Both the position numbers and the translations under genes were made by a program. The notes beneath the pieces were generated by a model. The model was not told where the DNA came from and did not search any database. It worked only from the letters and a program-made list of their open reading frames with translations. A stretch of DNA of 43,806 nt. Source: an uncultured Mycoplasmataceae bacterium. Lineage in GTDB: Bacteria > Bacillota_I > Bacilli_A > Mycoplasmatales > Mycoplasmoidaceae. The stretch covers positions 132,289 to 176,094 of the forward strand of contig CASDPP010000003.1 in the NCBI GenBank assembly GCA_949282725.1, given 5' to 3'. Positions 6,274 through 28,742 of this stretch are shown one piece after another; the stretch's first letter is position 1; each line of letters begins with the position of its first letter.

Positions 6274-8001
6274 ATGCAGCAATCTTTATTTGGAATGAAA
6301 TTAAAAAAAATATCACACGAATTTATCTATGGAGAAAATCGTAAAAAATCAACAAAGAATTTTATTTTCTCTGTTGCTGCCATAGTTTGTTCAATCATTA
6401 TTTCTTTATTGATTACTGAAATTATCTATGCAAACGAAGGTAGTAAATTTCTTAAAGTTATTGAGCAAATATTTCTTGCTCCATTTAGTTCAAGTAACTG
6501 AAAAAACACAATTAGTTCTATTGCCATTTTTGTTGTAGCAGGATTATCATTTATTTTTGCTAACAAAATAGGAATATTTAACATAGGTATTTCTGGTCAA
6601 ATGTTATTTGGGGCTCAAATCGGAACAGTTCTTACATGATTCATGCCAAACGTTCCTAATGGAATAGGACAAATAATCATGATTTTTATTTGCATGTTTT
6701 TTGCAAGTATGATTTCATTAATAATCATTCTTTTAAAAATTCATTTTAATGTTAATGAAGTAATATCATCAATTGTATTTAATTGAATCATTTATTTTTG
6801 TGGGGCATATTTACTAAGTACAGTTGGAAATAAAATGTCTAAAATTGATTCTAGTGGTTTAAATACACAAGGTTTATCACCAAACTTTACGTTAGCAATT
6901 TCTGGAAATTCAAATATATCAGGAAGTTGATTGATACTAACAATTATTATGTTTATTGTGATAATTTTCAGCATTTTATTACTTAATTATTCCACATTTG
7001 GGAAAAAATGTACATGTACAGGTTATAGTTTGTTTGGCTCAGAATATGCAGGCATTAATATTAAAAAGAATCAAATTATTATCATGATTATTTCTGGAGC
7101 TTTAGCTGGTTTATTAGGAGCAATGATTTATGCTGGCAAAGATAATACCATGAACGTTACTATTACAGATAAAGTAATACCACAAGATGGATTTAATGGT
7201 ATTTCTATTGGTTTAATAGCAATGAATAATCCATATGGTGTTTTACCTGTATCATTTTTATTTGGAATGATTCAAGGAGCAAAAGCTAATATAAGTCAAG
7301 TATGTGGAGTAGATATTGCTATAGCAGACTTGATGTTTGGAATAATTGTTTATGGTTCAGCAATAATCACAATATTTTATTGATTTAAACCATGAATTTG
7401 AATCAAACGAATTTTCATGGGAAAAACAAAAGTAAAAAGATATGATGATTTTATTAAACGCAATCAATCAAACATAGATGATTTAAATGATAAAGAATTT
7501 TTACTAAAAAATTATTATAAATTATTAAAAATTTATAAAAAAAACACAATTGAACAAACTGATCTTGCTAAGAATAAATTTTTTGCAAACGAAAAAGAAA
7601 AGATTAAAAAATTAGATAAAACAATTGATTTTTTACTTGATATGTATGATCAAAGTTACGATACCTTAAACACTAAGAACAAATTTTTATTTTTTAAAGA
7701 ATTTTATACTGTTCATCATAACAGATTAGCAAAAGACATTTTAATAAATATTAGTATATTTAAGTACAAGAAAACAAAAAAAACACTATATCTTAAAAGA
7801 ATCTATTATGAAATTAAATCTCGATACCTTCAGAATTTAATTAATAGCACTAGTCAAAAATTACAAGAATTAAAGATCGTTAACAAAAAAAATCATTTTG
7901 ATAAAAATCAATTAAACAATAATCTATACAAACTATATCTTCAATATATCAATAAATACAAACACAATGTAATTTTGTATCGAAAAGGAGGTAAAAAATA
8001 A
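6274..8001 (+). CDS. nucleoside ABC transporter permease 1 with long C-terminal tail
   Basis: This is a membrane component of the BMP-type transporter (BPD_transp_2 / RbsC-NupP family). The first roughly 375 residues form about nine to ten helices with family blocks such as GIFNIGISGQMLFGAQIG, SGALAGLLGAMIYAG and DGFNGISIGLIAM. The frame then reads straight on through several UGA Trp codons (YWFKPWIWIK) into about 190 residues that are hydrophilic, lysine-rich and probably helical (GKTKVKRYDD to YRKGGKK), giving 575 residues in all. Typical permeases of this family stop after the membrane part, at about 350 residues. The tail has no motif I recognise and should lie in the cytoplasm. The stop overlaps the next start (TAATG). 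Confidence 0.9.
7986..7992 (+). promoter_or_regulatory. Shine-Dalgarno AGGAGGT for permease 2
   Basis: A full-strength AGGAGGT lies eight bases before the ATG at 8001, inside the end of permease 1, where it encodes the last Gly-Gly. It suggests coupled but independently strong initiation of the second permease. Confidence 0.75.
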
Positions 8002-13646: not shown

Positions 13647-15344
13647 ATGAATGTAGAAAAAAATGTTTTTTTAGCTTCTTTAATTGTTATATTTATTGGA
13701 TTAATTTTATTTTCAATAATATTTTTATCAAGTAAAGTACTAAAGAAAAAAGAATATTTGTTAAAAACACAATTTAATTCATTATATGCATTTGCAAATT
13801 TTGATAAATTTAAATATTTAAAAATTTTATCAGAACAAAACAAAGATTTTTTAGCATTTATTTCAAAAATTGAAAATGTAAATACTTTTTTTAAAGCTCA
13901 ATGTGATATTGTTAAAGAAAAATTAATTTTATTAACTGAAACAAATTTTAACTTCTCATTTATTAAAGCTAATAAATTAATTAATGAAATAACAAACGAT
14001 TTGAAATATTGTGATACCATTAAATATGATTTGTTATCACTAAATACCAATTTCACTAAGTATTATGATGAAATCAATAAAATTCTTTTAGAATATCGAA
14101 TTATTACTGATGAAGCAATAGAATTTTATGAACAAAATTTATCTTTAAAATATAATTTTCCAATTTTTAAAACATTAAATAATAAAATAGTAGATTCATT
14201 TTTAAAAACATACGATTCACTAAAAATTATTGATCAAGATAAATTGATAAATTGCATAAATAATCTAGACTACAATATTTCAACTTTTGTTAATACAATT
14301 CATCAGATTTATGTCTTAGATAATATCTTGTTTTATATTAAAACTAATTTAAAAAACATTAACGAATACAGAAATAATAAAGAAACAATTATTTCTTCAG
14401 GAGATATAGTTTTACTTGAACAAATTGAAGTAAATATTAAATCTAATATTTTAGAAATAGAAAATGATATTAAAACGTACAACTTTTCTACAGCAATGAA
14501 TCTATCATTTATTACAATTAATAAATTAGATGAAGGGTTAAAAATCATTAAGTATTCAGATAAATTAAATAGCTTAATTTCAACAAGTTTAAATTTCATA
14601 AAACAAAGATATAACTTTTTGAAAAAAAATGCTGAAATAATTAAGTCTAATTTTCAACAAATAGTTGACTATTTTAAGAATGATAAAAAAATGGTTAATG
14701 AATTAAATAAAATAAATATTTTATTTACATCAATTCATTTAGCACTTCAACAAATTATTTCTACTGCAGAAAATAAAAAAGAAGTTGATAAAACATTATT
14801 TCTTTCTTCACTATATGAACAATTAAATAATCTAAAAACATTATTTAATATGTTACAAGATATAGCAGCAAAAGCAAAACATCAAATTGATTTATTTACA
14901 GATCTTTATGAACAAATATCAGATTTAAAATTAATTTTATTGCAATTAAAATATATTGATAGTAATATCAATAATAAACAAGATTCTTCAGAAAAAGATG
15001 AAGTTAATAAACTTATTTTATTAAATATGCAAACATTAGAAAAAATGGAAAATAAATTATTGCATGCAGATTATAGTATTGATGGATATTTTAAACAAAT
15101 AAAAGAAGAATTAACAAACATAAATTCTAATGTTGAAATTTTAACAAGAAAAATTTCATCAAATGATTCTTTAAAAATGATTACAGAAAGATTATATATG
15201 TTTGCTAGTAAGCATCGTAATGAATCAAATGAAAACAAAGATATTCTAGAAACAGCAAAGAAACATTTTATTAATAAACAATATAAAGAGGCTTTAAATC
15301 TTTTACTAGAGTTTCTTTCACAAATTGATAATCGTTCGTATTAA
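13647..15344 (+). CDS. membrane-anchored coiled-coil protein, EzrA-like layout
   Basis: I do not recognise a specific family. The 565 residues start with one membrane helix (about residues 8-29, FLASLIVIFIGLILFSIIFL) followed directly by lysines, so the remaining 530 residues should be cytosolic. They are rich in Leu, Lys, Asn and Glu with heptad-like spacing, and the end (AKKHFINKQYKEALNLLLEF) resembles a TPR-type helix pair. An N-terminal anchor plus long spectrin-like coiled coil is the layout of EzrA, the FtsZ-ring regulator, but sequence evidence for that is weak. A structural or division role is only inference. Its stop overlaps that of feoB on the opposite strand. Confidence 0.8.
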   Translation: MNVEKNVFLASLIVIFIGLILFSIIFLSSKVLKKKEYLLKTQFNSLYAFANFDKFKYLKILSEQNKDFLAFISKIENVNTFFKAQCDIVKEKLILLTETNFNFSFIKANKLINEITNDLKYCDTIKYDLLSLNTNFTKYYDEINKILLEYRIITDEAIEFYEQNLSLKYNFPIFKTLNNKIVDSFLKTYDSLKIIDQDKLINCINNLDYNISTFVNTIHQIYVLDNILFYIKTNLKNINEYRNNKETIISSGDIVLLEQIEVNIKSNILEIENDIKTYNFSTAMNLSFITINKLDEGLKIIKYSDKLNSLISTSLNFIKQRYNFLKKNAEIIKSNFQQIVDYFKNDKKMVNELNKINILFTSIHLALQQIISTAENKKEVDKTLFLSSLYEQLNNLKTLFNMLQDIAAKAKHQIDLFTDLYEQISDLKLILLQLKYIDSNINNKQDSSEKDEVNKLILLNMQTLEKMENKLLHADYSIDGYFKQIKEELTNINSNVEILTRKISSNDSLKMITERLYMFASKHRNESNENKDILETAKKHFINKQYKEALNLLLEFLSQIDNRSY

Positions 15345-23389: not shown

Positions 23390-26368
23390 ATGTCTGTGAT
23401 AAAAAGAAGAAATAAAATAATACAAAACCCAAAACCAAATAAAAAAATTAAAAAAGTTTTAAATTTTTTTATAGTGCTTTTTATATTATTTTTTTCATTG
23501 GGATGTTCAGCTGGATCATTGTATTATTCTTGCACAAATTATCAACTTGATTCAAAATATGAAAAATCATATGATATTAAATTTGAACTTGATTTAGAAA
23601 AAAAAGAAAATCCTAACGAAATTAATACAGACATTAAAAATTATGATGTTATAGAAAAAAAACTAAATGAATCAATTGATAATTATTACAAATATCTTTC
23701 TGATAGAGGTATTAATGTTAGCAATATTTACTCAGAAATTAAAAAAGATCAACATGATGACTATCATGCATATATTGATATAAATGTTTCTAATCAAAAA
23801 GATTCGAAAGATAAAGATTTACCACAAGCAGAAGTATATTTTAATGCTGTAAATGCATCAAGATTATCAGTTTTTTACCACAAAGGTAATGATACAAATC
23901 AAAATTTTATTTACACAAAAGAGGATCTAATTAAATCGAATGATGATATTTCTCTTTCATCAGATCAAACAAAATATGATATTTTGTTAAAAGATTCATG
24001 AAAAGATATAAGAGAAAATTTTGAAAAGAGTAAAGATTATACAGATCAACCATACATATATATAATCCGTGATCAAAACAGTTTATTAAATAGATTAAAT
24101 TACATTATTTGAACTGTTAAAAATTATCAAGATAATGGTGGAGAAATGATAGCTCCAACTAAAATTAAAGAAGATTATAACAACTTGCAATCATCAGAAC
24201 AAAACTTTGGTAAAGATTGGTTAATTGCACACGATGATACATTGGAAATAGACCCGACACAAATTATGAGTCTTGATTCAACAACTCAGTCCGAATTATC
24301 ATCTGGTTCTATTTTCTGTGATAATTTAAAAAATGAAAATTATATTAATTTTCTTGAAGATGTTTCACTAGATAAAACGACAAACAAAACAAACCATTCA
24401 GGAAATTTAAAATATACATTTTTGTCAAAATATATTTTAGGAATAATAATTAATTCAGATGATGAAAACAACAACAGATCTTATAAAAAACAAATTCCAG
24501 AAAAAAGTCCAAAAAACCCTTCAGAAAACGCAAATGATAGATGATTATCTATTCAATCTTTCGGATTAACCCAATATAACTACAAATTATATTATCGAGA
24601 AATTACCGATTATACTTTTGCTTATCCAATTAAAAATATTTGTGAATCTAATGAAACTAAAACACAAATTTGGTCAAAAATTACAGGTCACAACGAAAAA
24701 GGGACAATTGTTGAAAATCAAGAAAACTATGTTAATGTTATTAATTTAGAACTTAAGGATGGATTATTTGGTTCTATTTCAAGTATTTTATCACTATTAA
24801 TAATCTTATTAACATTAATTTTATTAATATCTATCATTGTTTCTATTTTGTATAAAATACCAGGAATTATTGCTTCATCAGCTATAGTTTTATCTACAAC
24901 ATTGTCGATAATGTTCTATGTATTAGCAGGGTTTCAAATATCAATTAATTTATTGATAGGTGTAATTATTTTATTAACTTTAGGTTTATTTTCTTCAATA
25001 GTATTTCTGGAAAAATACAAAAAAAATATCTTACGTTATGAGAATGTTATGTCTGCTGTAAAAGAAACTATTAGAAAATCTTTTTTACAAATATTTGATT
25101 TTCATATCATTACTTTTACAACAGGATTATTAATATTTTTATTATCTAAATCAATGTTTACATCTTTAGGATGTTTCATGGTTATTGGATCACTATTATC
25201 AATTGTATTCAATTGTTTTATTTTTATCCTCTTAATTTTTTCAATGTTTTTTAACAAAACAAATAACTATAATTTTTCTTCATCAATATATTCTTATCAA
25301 AAAAAACTAACATGATTTAAAAATTTACTATCTAAAAATGCTTACACACAATATTTCTCATTCACACCAGTATTAAAACAAAACTTTTGATCAAAACTAA
25401 ATATTTTCAAATGACCATTAATTGCTACATTAAGTACTATTTTAATTATTGCAATTTTAAGTCTTTCTTTGTTTTTTACATTAGGAATTCATAATTCATA
25501 TATCTTTTTTGGTGGAACAAGATTGGTGATTTATTCTAACACAAATATAACACAAGAAATGTTTAATCAAATAGTTAATAATATACCAAATTCTAGTGCT
25601 TGATATTCACCATTTTATTCTGATCACTATATTTATTTATTTACCTACAATGATTATTATTCAGGTGATCAAACAGAAATTATTTCTTTTTTAACTGGTT
25701 TAGGTTATAGTGCACAATATATTTCTTTCCAAGAAATATCAAACTCAGTTCCGTTATTATCATTAAAAAATATAATTTTTGTTTTAACCATTGTATTATT
25801 AATTATTTCTTTATTAGCATTTGTAAGATTTGGATGACAAACATTTATTATTGTTTTTGTTTCAGCATTTTTAAGTTCATTATTATCATTTGCTGTGTTA
25901 ATTGTCTGTCAAATTTATATTGATGAATATATTTGTTATTCATTAATCTTGCAATTCATGTTTAACATTTACTTGTTATTTTTAATTATTGGTGATTTAT
26001 CAAGTAAATATATTAAAAAATACGCTAAATCATTTAAAGCTATTATTCAAACATATAATGATGAAATTAAATGTCATATTAAGATTATTTCAATATATTT
26101 AGCTTTTATGATTTTGTTTAATATAGTAAATATCATAATTGGTTCAAGTTCGATAACATATTTATTTATTCCGTTATTATTAGCACAATTTGTAATTGTA
26201 ATATTTAATTTTATTTGTGTTCCAGCATTATTAGCTCCAATGTTTTTAGTTAAACAAAAATATGCTTCAAATGTAAAATTCCTTGATACTAAAGATAAAA
26301 ATCTTGATAAAGTAGATGAACAAATTATTGATGGTATAAACAAACCAATTAAACATGAAAAGTTGTAA
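23390..26368 (+). CDS. secDF: protein translocase SecDF
   Basis: SecDF is the proton-driven auxiliary subunit that helps pull secreted proteins through SecYEG. The single chain has 992 residues: a membrane helix at about 24-45, a large extracellular part up to about residue 460, a cluster of five to six helices (from SISSILSLLIILLTLILL), a second extracellular domain around SYIFFGGTRLVIYSNTNITQ and a second helix cluster, ending in a lysine-rich tail. The order matches a SecD-SecF fusion with twelve helices. Sequence conservation is low: the canonical D1 motif DLxGG is replaced by YDIKFELDLE near residues 62-71, as seen in divergent mollicute forms. It overlaps apt by 14 bases. Confidence 0.82.
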
Positions 26369-26893: not shown

Positions 26894-26914
26894 ATTCTAT
26901 ATTAGATATAGAAT
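26894..26914 (+). repeat. inverted repeat over the start codon of the C39/ABC gene
   Basis: ATTCTATA and its exact complement TATAGAAT are separated by five bases (TTAGA). The right arm ends with the first two bases of the ATG at 26913. In RNA this would be an 8-bp hairpin that covers the start codon, in a 24-base gap without an SD. Confidence 0.75.
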
Positions 26915-28742
26915 GGAAATTACTAAACAGAAAAGTAGTTTAGAATGTGGTGTTTGTGTAATTAATTCATTTGTTAAACACTATTACAATCAAAACATTA
27001 AACATGAAATTCTAGATAGTGCTAACATTACAGATAGTGGGCTTAGCATTTATGATTTTGAACTATTAGGTCAAAAATATAATTTGCTTATTGAAAGTTT
27101 TCATTGGAAAGATGAAGAATTATTAGATTTAAATAAGAACAAGTATTATGTAACAATTTTTAATGAAAACAATCTATTTCATTATGTATTTTTTAAAAAA
27201 CAAAACAACTCATTTAAGATATATGATTCAGCAAAAGGGGAATATTACTTAACAAAAGAACAATTTATTAAAAAGTATATCAACATCATTATTACAATAG
27301 ATAAAATTAAAACAAAAGTTAATTTTACATCAAATAATTTAACTATAAAACCAACGAATTTTAAATTTATTTTAGTTAACTTATTACTAAATTTTAGTTC
27401 AATTATTTTATCTACTTTATTAGCTAATGTTGTTAGTTGATCATTATCATTTGCAGTAAATATTGAATCAATAAAAAATTTAATTACTATTTTATTTCTA
27501 TTTGTTTTAATTAATTTACTAGAGCATTTAATTAATTATTTATTATCAAATTATTTGCTAATATATTTTAGGCAAAGTTTCAATATTTTGACTAACAAAT
27601 TTATTGAAATAATTAAAAATAAAAAACGCGACTTTTTTAATAAATATGAAAGAAATAATTTGTATTTAATTGAATCAGCTATTTTAACGATCACAAATTA
27701 TTACATTAAAGTTATTCCAAGTTTTATTTCCAATATCATCATGATAGTTTGTTTAACCGTTATTTTATTATTTATTAATTATTTCTTTTTATTTTTTGTT
27801 TTATTTTATTTAGTAGTTACATGTTTAACAAATTTTTTTACATATCGAATAAGTGAAAGAAATTTTAAATTAATTATCCAATATACTAGTCAAACAACTT
27901 CTTCAACATCAGAACTTATAGAAAATATTTTAAACAAATTATATCCATCACAAAAAATGAAAAATATCGAAAAATTAAAAAATAATTTTTTCAACTTTAA
28001 AACTACATATATTAAAAATCAAGCTGATACAAATCATGTCTTATTTTGAGATTATTTTTTAAAAGAATTGTGCTATTTATTTAGTGTCTTTATAGGATGT
28101 GTTTTGATTATGAACAATAAATTAAATGTTTACAATTTGTTTTTAATTTTTGCATTATTACATAATTGTATGAGTTCCATGTCAGAATTGTTTTCTTTTT
28201 TTGCAAAAAAGAATGAATACTCTAAGATGGTTGAAATATATTTAGGAGTATTAAAATTATCTAACATCAAAAATAATGAAGATCAATTGCAAATAAACGA
28301 AAAGATAAAATCACTAACTTTTAAAAACGAACAATGTGAACAAAAAATTCTTGTGGGTGATACATTATCTGATAAATTAAATATTAATGATTTATCAAAA
28401 ATAAATGATTTATCGATTACACACAATCAAAAAATAATTAATGAAAACGTTTATTTACTTGATTGAAATGTAAGGATTATGAAAGAGGATGTAATAAATG
28501 TCATAAAACATGCTGATTCACAAATCATTAATATGATTAATTTTTTTAATTTAAATATTTATGATAAACTTAATCAAAAAAATAATTTTGTTTATAACTT
28601 ACTTTATTTTAGTACTTTAAAAAATAAAATTATTATGCTTGATCAGTCAATAAAACTATTTAATGAAAAAGAAAAAAAAGAAATAAATCAATTTATTACA
28701 AATAGAATAGCAAACAAAAATTTTTTGTTCTTTATAAATTAA
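26913..28742 (+). CDS. C39 peptidase-ABC exporter with degenerate ATPase domain
   Basis: The 609 residues have the order of a peptidase-containing ABC exporter. The N-terminal C39 domain looks active: Gln6 and Cys12 in KQKSSLECGVC, His90 in FHYVFF, Asp105 in IYDSAKG. About six helices follow (roughly 150-425). The last 160 residues occupy the place of the ATPase but its motifs are gone: at the Walker A site the chain reads ILVGDTLSDKLN (482-488 lack two glycines and the Ser/Thr), no LSGGQ is present, Walker B is IIMLDQS with Gln578 for the catalytic Glu, and the H-loop His is missing. The frame is intact throughout, so this is not a simple pseudogene. Homologues process double-glycine leader peptides and export them; the substrate here is unknown. 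Confidence 0.85.

What the first reader, a model, noticed from the sequence alone, without database searches (positions are those of the whole stretch)
26913..28742. C39 peptidase-exporter with a dead ATPase domain but an intact protease site
The peptidase residues Gln6, Cys12, His90 and Asp105 are all present with normal spacing, and the six-helix membrane part is there. Yet Walker A has lost two glycines and the Ser/Thr (GDTLSDKL), no LSGGQ is seen, the catalytic Glu is Gln578 and the H-loop His is gone. The frame has no internal stop over 609 codons, so the loss looks selected or tolerated while the protease is kept. This may be a membrane-bound double-glycine protease without ATP-driven export, or one half of a heterodimer whose active partner is elsewhere.
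Basis: partly seen in the sequence, partly recalled or inferred. Interest (0 to 1): 0.72.

Follow-up and report, generated by a model that had tools for sequence, protein, structure and literature searches.

The report
Peptide exporter with ATPase permanently dead
A whole genus of gut mycoplasmas keeps a working-looking protease fused to a peptide exporter whose ATP motor has lost every catalytic motif, which suggests the protease is the part of this machine that must be kept.

Summary
Window 26913-28742 (code 4, 609 aa) has the intact C39 residues Gln6/Cys12/His90/Asp105, a six-helix exporter domain, and a C-terminal domain without Walker A, signature, catalytic Glu or H-loop. It is the ortholog of the Mbov_0121 family (NF045998), single-copy in 227 of 298 Mycoplasmatales genomes sampled. 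It is not recent damage. All 29 complete or near-complete orthologs from other species of the genus are ATPase-dead with an intact triad. The C-terminal part is a true NBD remnant (hhalign 98.9%, E 1.5e-17), still open and under purifying selection (omega 0.11-0.28). A sister genus and a separate trio of species are also dead, so there were probably two losses. All 28 sampled orthologs from other families keep the motifs. Two species in another genus show the reverse: protease dead, ATPase motifs intact. The small MAG1140-family neighbour gene is kept in 31 of 36 genomes. No unpaired ABC half-transporter and no convincing Gly-Gly peptide was found in this genome. Best reading: a pseudo-ABC peptidase, with the NBD remnant as scaffold and docking site for the protease. 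ATP-free processing is inferred, not shown. It is a new variant of a known kind.

The parts
26913..28742 (+). whole gene: ATPase-dead peptidase-containing ABC exporter (Mbov_0121-family ortholog), 609 aa, code 4
26913..27317 (+). Peptidase C39 domain (residues 1-135)
   Evidence: Pfam 1e-17; AlphaFold pLDDT about 85-92
26928..26930 (+). Gln6 codon (oxyanion)
   Evidence: invariant in 31 of 31 aligned
26946..26948 (+). Cys12 codon (nucleophile)
   Evidence: invariant in 31 of 31 aligned
27180..27182 (+). His90 codon
   Evidence: invariant in 31 of 31 aligned
27225..27227 (+). Asp105 codon
   Evidence: invariant in 31 of 31 aligned
27360..28256 (+). six-helix exporter transmembrane domain (about residues 150-448)
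   Evidence: AlphaFold helices; Foldseek and VIA-align to PCAT1/ComA/HlyB; ABC_membrane weak
28263..28739 (+). pseudo-NBD (residues 451-609), NBD remnant without catalytic motifs
   Evidence: hhalign to intact NBDs 98.9%, E 1.5e-17; shuffled columns no match; motif table
28641..28646 (+). former Walker B end: D577 then Q578 in place of the catalytic Glu
   Evidence: 0 of 30 genus members have Glu here; D577 in 17 of 30

Best explanation
This is a peptidase-containing ABC exporter (PCAT, Mbov_0121 family) that lost its ATPase in the common ancestor of its genus and a sister genus and has since been maintained as a pseudo-ABC peptidase. Shown: protease residues intact, exporter fold kept (by prediction), NBD homologous but without ATP-binding and hydrolysis motifs, all three parts still under purifying selection, and the small MAG1140-family partner gene still present. 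Inferred: the C39 domain still cleaves leader peptides at the membrane. [quoted passage not shown] without ATP binding the core would sit in the inward-facing, protease-docked state all the time. The TMD and pseudo-NBD would then be a docking scaffold and cradle for the cargo, and the cleaved cargo would leave passively, insert in the membrane, or be released into the cell. The substrate is unknown.
For: C39 residues QCHD intact in every ATPase-dead ortholog whose N-terminus is covered, in genus g1, genus g24 and three g20 species. Single copy; 34 of 36 genus genomes and 11 of 11 near-complete ones have it; 29 complete or near-complete orthologs besides the window's, all with open frames. In the genus the order of conservation is C39 0.44 > TMD 0.29 > C-term 0.25, while in other families C39 0.25, TMD 0.18, NBD 0.25. 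C-term omega 0.11-0.28 in g1 pairs, upper 95% bounds 0.42 or less. NBD homology by hhalign with shuffle control. Tree: two losses of motifs; a single origin has AU p 0.032. AlphaFold/Foldseek: best matches are PCAT1, with the C-term aligned to PCAT1 residue 678. MAG1140-family partner kept in 31 of 36 genus genomes, in this genome at C1:219778-220176 beside ybeY. All 20 further orthologs checked in other families have intact motifs, as do the 8 first ones.
Against: No double-glycine peptide found: 0 strict, 3 weak free-standing relaxed matches. The C-term evolves faster than the rest in dead lineages (dN ratio 1.5-4.1, against 0.85-2.4 in living ones, so the ranges overlap). In the g20 pair the C-term omega is 0.86 (0.53-1.27), compatible with near-neutral drift. 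Without energy input a TMD of this kind is not known to move cargo, so retention of the TMD needs the docking idea, which was not tested here. The genus genomes are MAGs.
Confidence: 0.55

Rival explanations
1. The protein is the catalytically dead half of a heterodimer and borrows an active ATPase half from another ABC protein.
For: Heterodimeric exporters with one degenerate site are common; the fold search also matches TM287/288, TmrAB and BmrCD. The genome has one other exporter pair.
Against: That pair is adjacent, each half has Walker A, signature and a DE Walker B, so it looks self-sufficient. The other NBD genes inspected sit beside their own permease. Degenerate halves keep ATP binding; here Walker A is gone as well. 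The assembly is about 93% complete, so a missing partner is not excluded.
Confidence: 0.1
2. The gene is simply decaying; the ATPase went first and the rest will follow.
For: Faster C-term; one species has a shortened C-term (G004, 546 aa); g20 pair near neutral; a frame break between TMD and NBD in the other-genus genome G036.
Against: At least 29 species with intact frames at 22-34% identity to the window protein, triad invariant, omega far below 1; the dead state predates the split of two genera.
Confidence: 0.1
3. The C39 domain no longer works as a leader protease but as another thiol enzyme, for example the transamidation or lipoyl-peptide uptake proposed for JCVI-syn3A gene 0401 (PMC6609329).
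For: No double-glycine substrate found in syn3A or in other mycoplasmas (PMC6609329, citing Dirix 2004) nor here; the catalytic residues are kept.
Against: Import by an ATPase-dead protein is harder still to power; C39 specificity features other than the triad were not tested.
Confidence: 0.15
4. The NBD still binds or uses nucleotide through replaced motifs.
For: A Walker-B-like strand persists.
Against: The D577 equivalent is Asp in only 17 of 30, Glu never at 578, no P-loop, no H-loop.
Confidence: 0.05

Closest known systems
Mbov_0121 family peptidase domain-containing ABC transporter (NCBIfam NF045998)
   Same: Orthologous: best family hit, single-copy in the order; in some other families and in G036 it also lies near glyS, as here
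   Different: Score 201 bits against cut-off 500, matched only to position 475 of 673; NBD motifs lost
PCAT1 (Clostridium thermocellum), ComA, LahT/AMS exporters
   Same: C39 triad, six-helix TMD, overall fold
   Different: Those have active NBDs and known double-glycine substrates
HlyB-type exporters with C39-like domain
   Same: Decoupling of the two activities within one architecture
   Different: HlyB keeps the ATPase and loses the protease; here the reverse. The g23 genomes resemble HlyB in this respect
Heterodimeric ABC exporters with a degenerate site (TM287/288, TmrAB, BmrCD)
   Same: Non-consensus NBD in an exporter
   Different: Those keep Walker A and an active partner; no partner seen here
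JCVI-syn3A 0401 (PMC6609329)
   Same: Mycoplasmal C39 exporter with no known substrate
   Different: Annotated as a sublancin-transporter homolog; its NBD was not examined here

Membership tests
Peptidase C39 (PF03412) | Gln, Cys, His, Asp catalytic residues | tested here: met
PCAT / ABC exporter | C39 fused to six-helix exporter TMD | tested here: met
PCAT / ABC exporter | NBD with Walker A, LSGGQ, Walker B Glu, H-loop | tested here: not met
PCAT / ABC exporter | C-terminal domain homologous to an NBD | tested here: met
PCAT / ABC exporter | encoded double-glycine leader substrate | tested here: inconclusive
Mbov_0121 equivalog (NF045998) | score over curated cut-off 500 | tested here: not met
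   201 bits; orthology rests on the tree, single copy and context
Mbov_0121 + MAG1140 gene pair | MAG1140-family gene next to it | tested here: not met
   not adjacent in genus g1 but present elsewhere, beside ybeY in this genome
Heterodimeric exporter with degenerate site | unpaired active half-transporter in the genome | tested here: not met
   assembly about 93% complete
PCAT / ABC exporter | ATP-dependent peptide export and leader cleavage | not testable with these tools
   needs biochemistry

The most novel reading that the evidence does not exclude
An ATP-independent, constitutively docked membrane leader-peptidase made from a PCAT, in which an NBD remnant is kept as a scaffold, evolved at least twice in gut mycoplasmas, with the converse (ATPase kept, protease lost) in a related genus.
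Probability: 0.45. Interest if true: 0.7.

Novelty: new variant of a known kind. Interest (0 to 1): 0.55.

Why it matters
Mycoplasmas, including the minimal-cell line JCVI-syn3A, carry C39 exporters with no known substrate. A lineage that drops the motor in two separate places but never the protease, and another that does the opposite, separates the two activities by natural experiment and says which can be dispensed with. It also offers an ATP-free PCAT core in which the idea that ATP binding switches the protease off can be tested directly.

Tried and rejected
Sequencing error or recent pseudogene: rejected by the genus-wide dead state. True motifs elsewhere in the C-terminal part: none found. 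First thought that the MAG1140-family partner was lost in g1 because it is not adjacent: wrong, it is elsewhere in the genome. First thought that G036 had lost the NBD because its frame ends at 487 aa: it has an otherwise intact NBD in another frame after a break. Conserved neighbour genes in g1 as a functional clue: mostly housekeeping genes such as valS, glyS and aspS. Double-glycine peptide scan: nothing convincing. PDB sequence search with the MAG1140-family alignment: no match. AlphaFold of that protein: low confidence, one helix then beta strands. Papers on Mbov_0121: only lists of virulence-factor look-alikes (PMC10748157, PMC5426083).

Full report
What is there. The frame at 26913-28742 is real, read with TGA as Trp, and lies after a divergent SecDF-like gene and apt and before glyS and dnaG. 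It has a C39 peptidase domain with all four catalytic residues and six exporter helices. Its last 159 residues hit no ABC model.

Is the C-terminal part an NBD? Yes, a remnant. A profile of 29 genus C-terminal parts matches intact NBDs from relatives with 98.9% probability (E 1.5e-17), while five column-shuffled versions and the peptidase domain give nothing. The match starts after the P-loop and runs to just before the H-loop. There is no P-loop, no signature, and no Glu after the former Walker B in any of 30 genus members; the Walker B Asp is present in 17 of 30. The model (pLDDT 80.6, pTM 0.68) has the whole PCAT fold, with PCAT1 as the best match and the C-term aligned up to PCAT1 residue 678.

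How old is it? The C39-exporter is single-copy in 227 of 298 genomes sampled across the order, 27 of 46 genera. All genus orthologs are dead; the organisms named are metagenome bins labelled Mycoplasmataceae, Mycoplasmatota or Ureaplasma, several with rumen codes; that most are gut bacteria is my reading of the isolate names. In the same family, motifs are intact in g18, g19, g21, g22, g25, in two g20 species and in broad outline in g17, but lost in g24 and three g20 species. A tree without the C-terminal part groups g1 with g24 (support 89/90) and puts the g20 trio apart; one common origin fits worse (AU p 0.032), which is modest evidence. Twenty further orthologs from other families are all intact. 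Two g23 genomes show the mirror image: protease residues lost, NBD motifs kept.

Is it selected? Pairs within g1 and g24 give C-term omega 0.11-0.28, with C39 and TMD mostly lower; living NBDs give 0.05-0.34. So the C-term is constrained in g1, though somewhat faster relative to the rest than most living NBDs. The g20 pair is not clearly constrained. dS is near saturation in several pairs, so those values are rough.

Partners. In other genera a single-helix protein of about 120 aa, NCBIfam MAG1140 family, overlaps the end of the exporter gene. In g1 the exporter gene has moved, but the small gene is kept, in this genome between valS and ybeY. Both parts staying after separation suggests they still work together; that is an inference. 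The genome has one other exporter pair with its own motifs and the other NBD genes inspected have permeases beside them, so a heterodimer partner is not seen.

Mechanism. In PCAT1, cleavage needs the transporter core, and ATP binding undocks and inhibits the protease (PMC6959990). A core that cannot bind ATP should stay docked and cleavage-competent. This gives a reason to keep TMD and pseudo-NBD and to lose the motor. Cleavage itself, the substrate and the route of the cargo are not shown. JCVI-syn3A 0401 is a related open case: a C39 exporter with no identified substrate (PMC6609329).

Noticed in passing
L166 (G173), L167 (G263): g23 orthologs keep NBD motifs but have lost the C39 catalytic residues, the mirror image of this finding.
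   Followed up: partly
L142 (G111), L143 (G140), L146 (G231), L147 (G245): The C39 Asp is replaced by Cys in four orthologs of two genera, all with intact NBD motifs.
   Followed up: no
L068 about 6430-6583 (G036): A frame break separates the TMD from an NBD with otherwise intact motifs; error and real break cannot be told apart.
   Followed up: partly
window 23390-26368 (+): Very divergent SecDF-like protein, 85 bits against a 500-bit cut-off for NF046001.
   Followed up: no
window 13647-15344 (+): 565 aa protein without any Pfam or NCBIfam match.
   Followed up: no
this genome C1:219778-220176 (outside the window): MAG1140-family small membrane protein kept between valS and ybeY after the exporter gene moved away.
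   Followed up: yes
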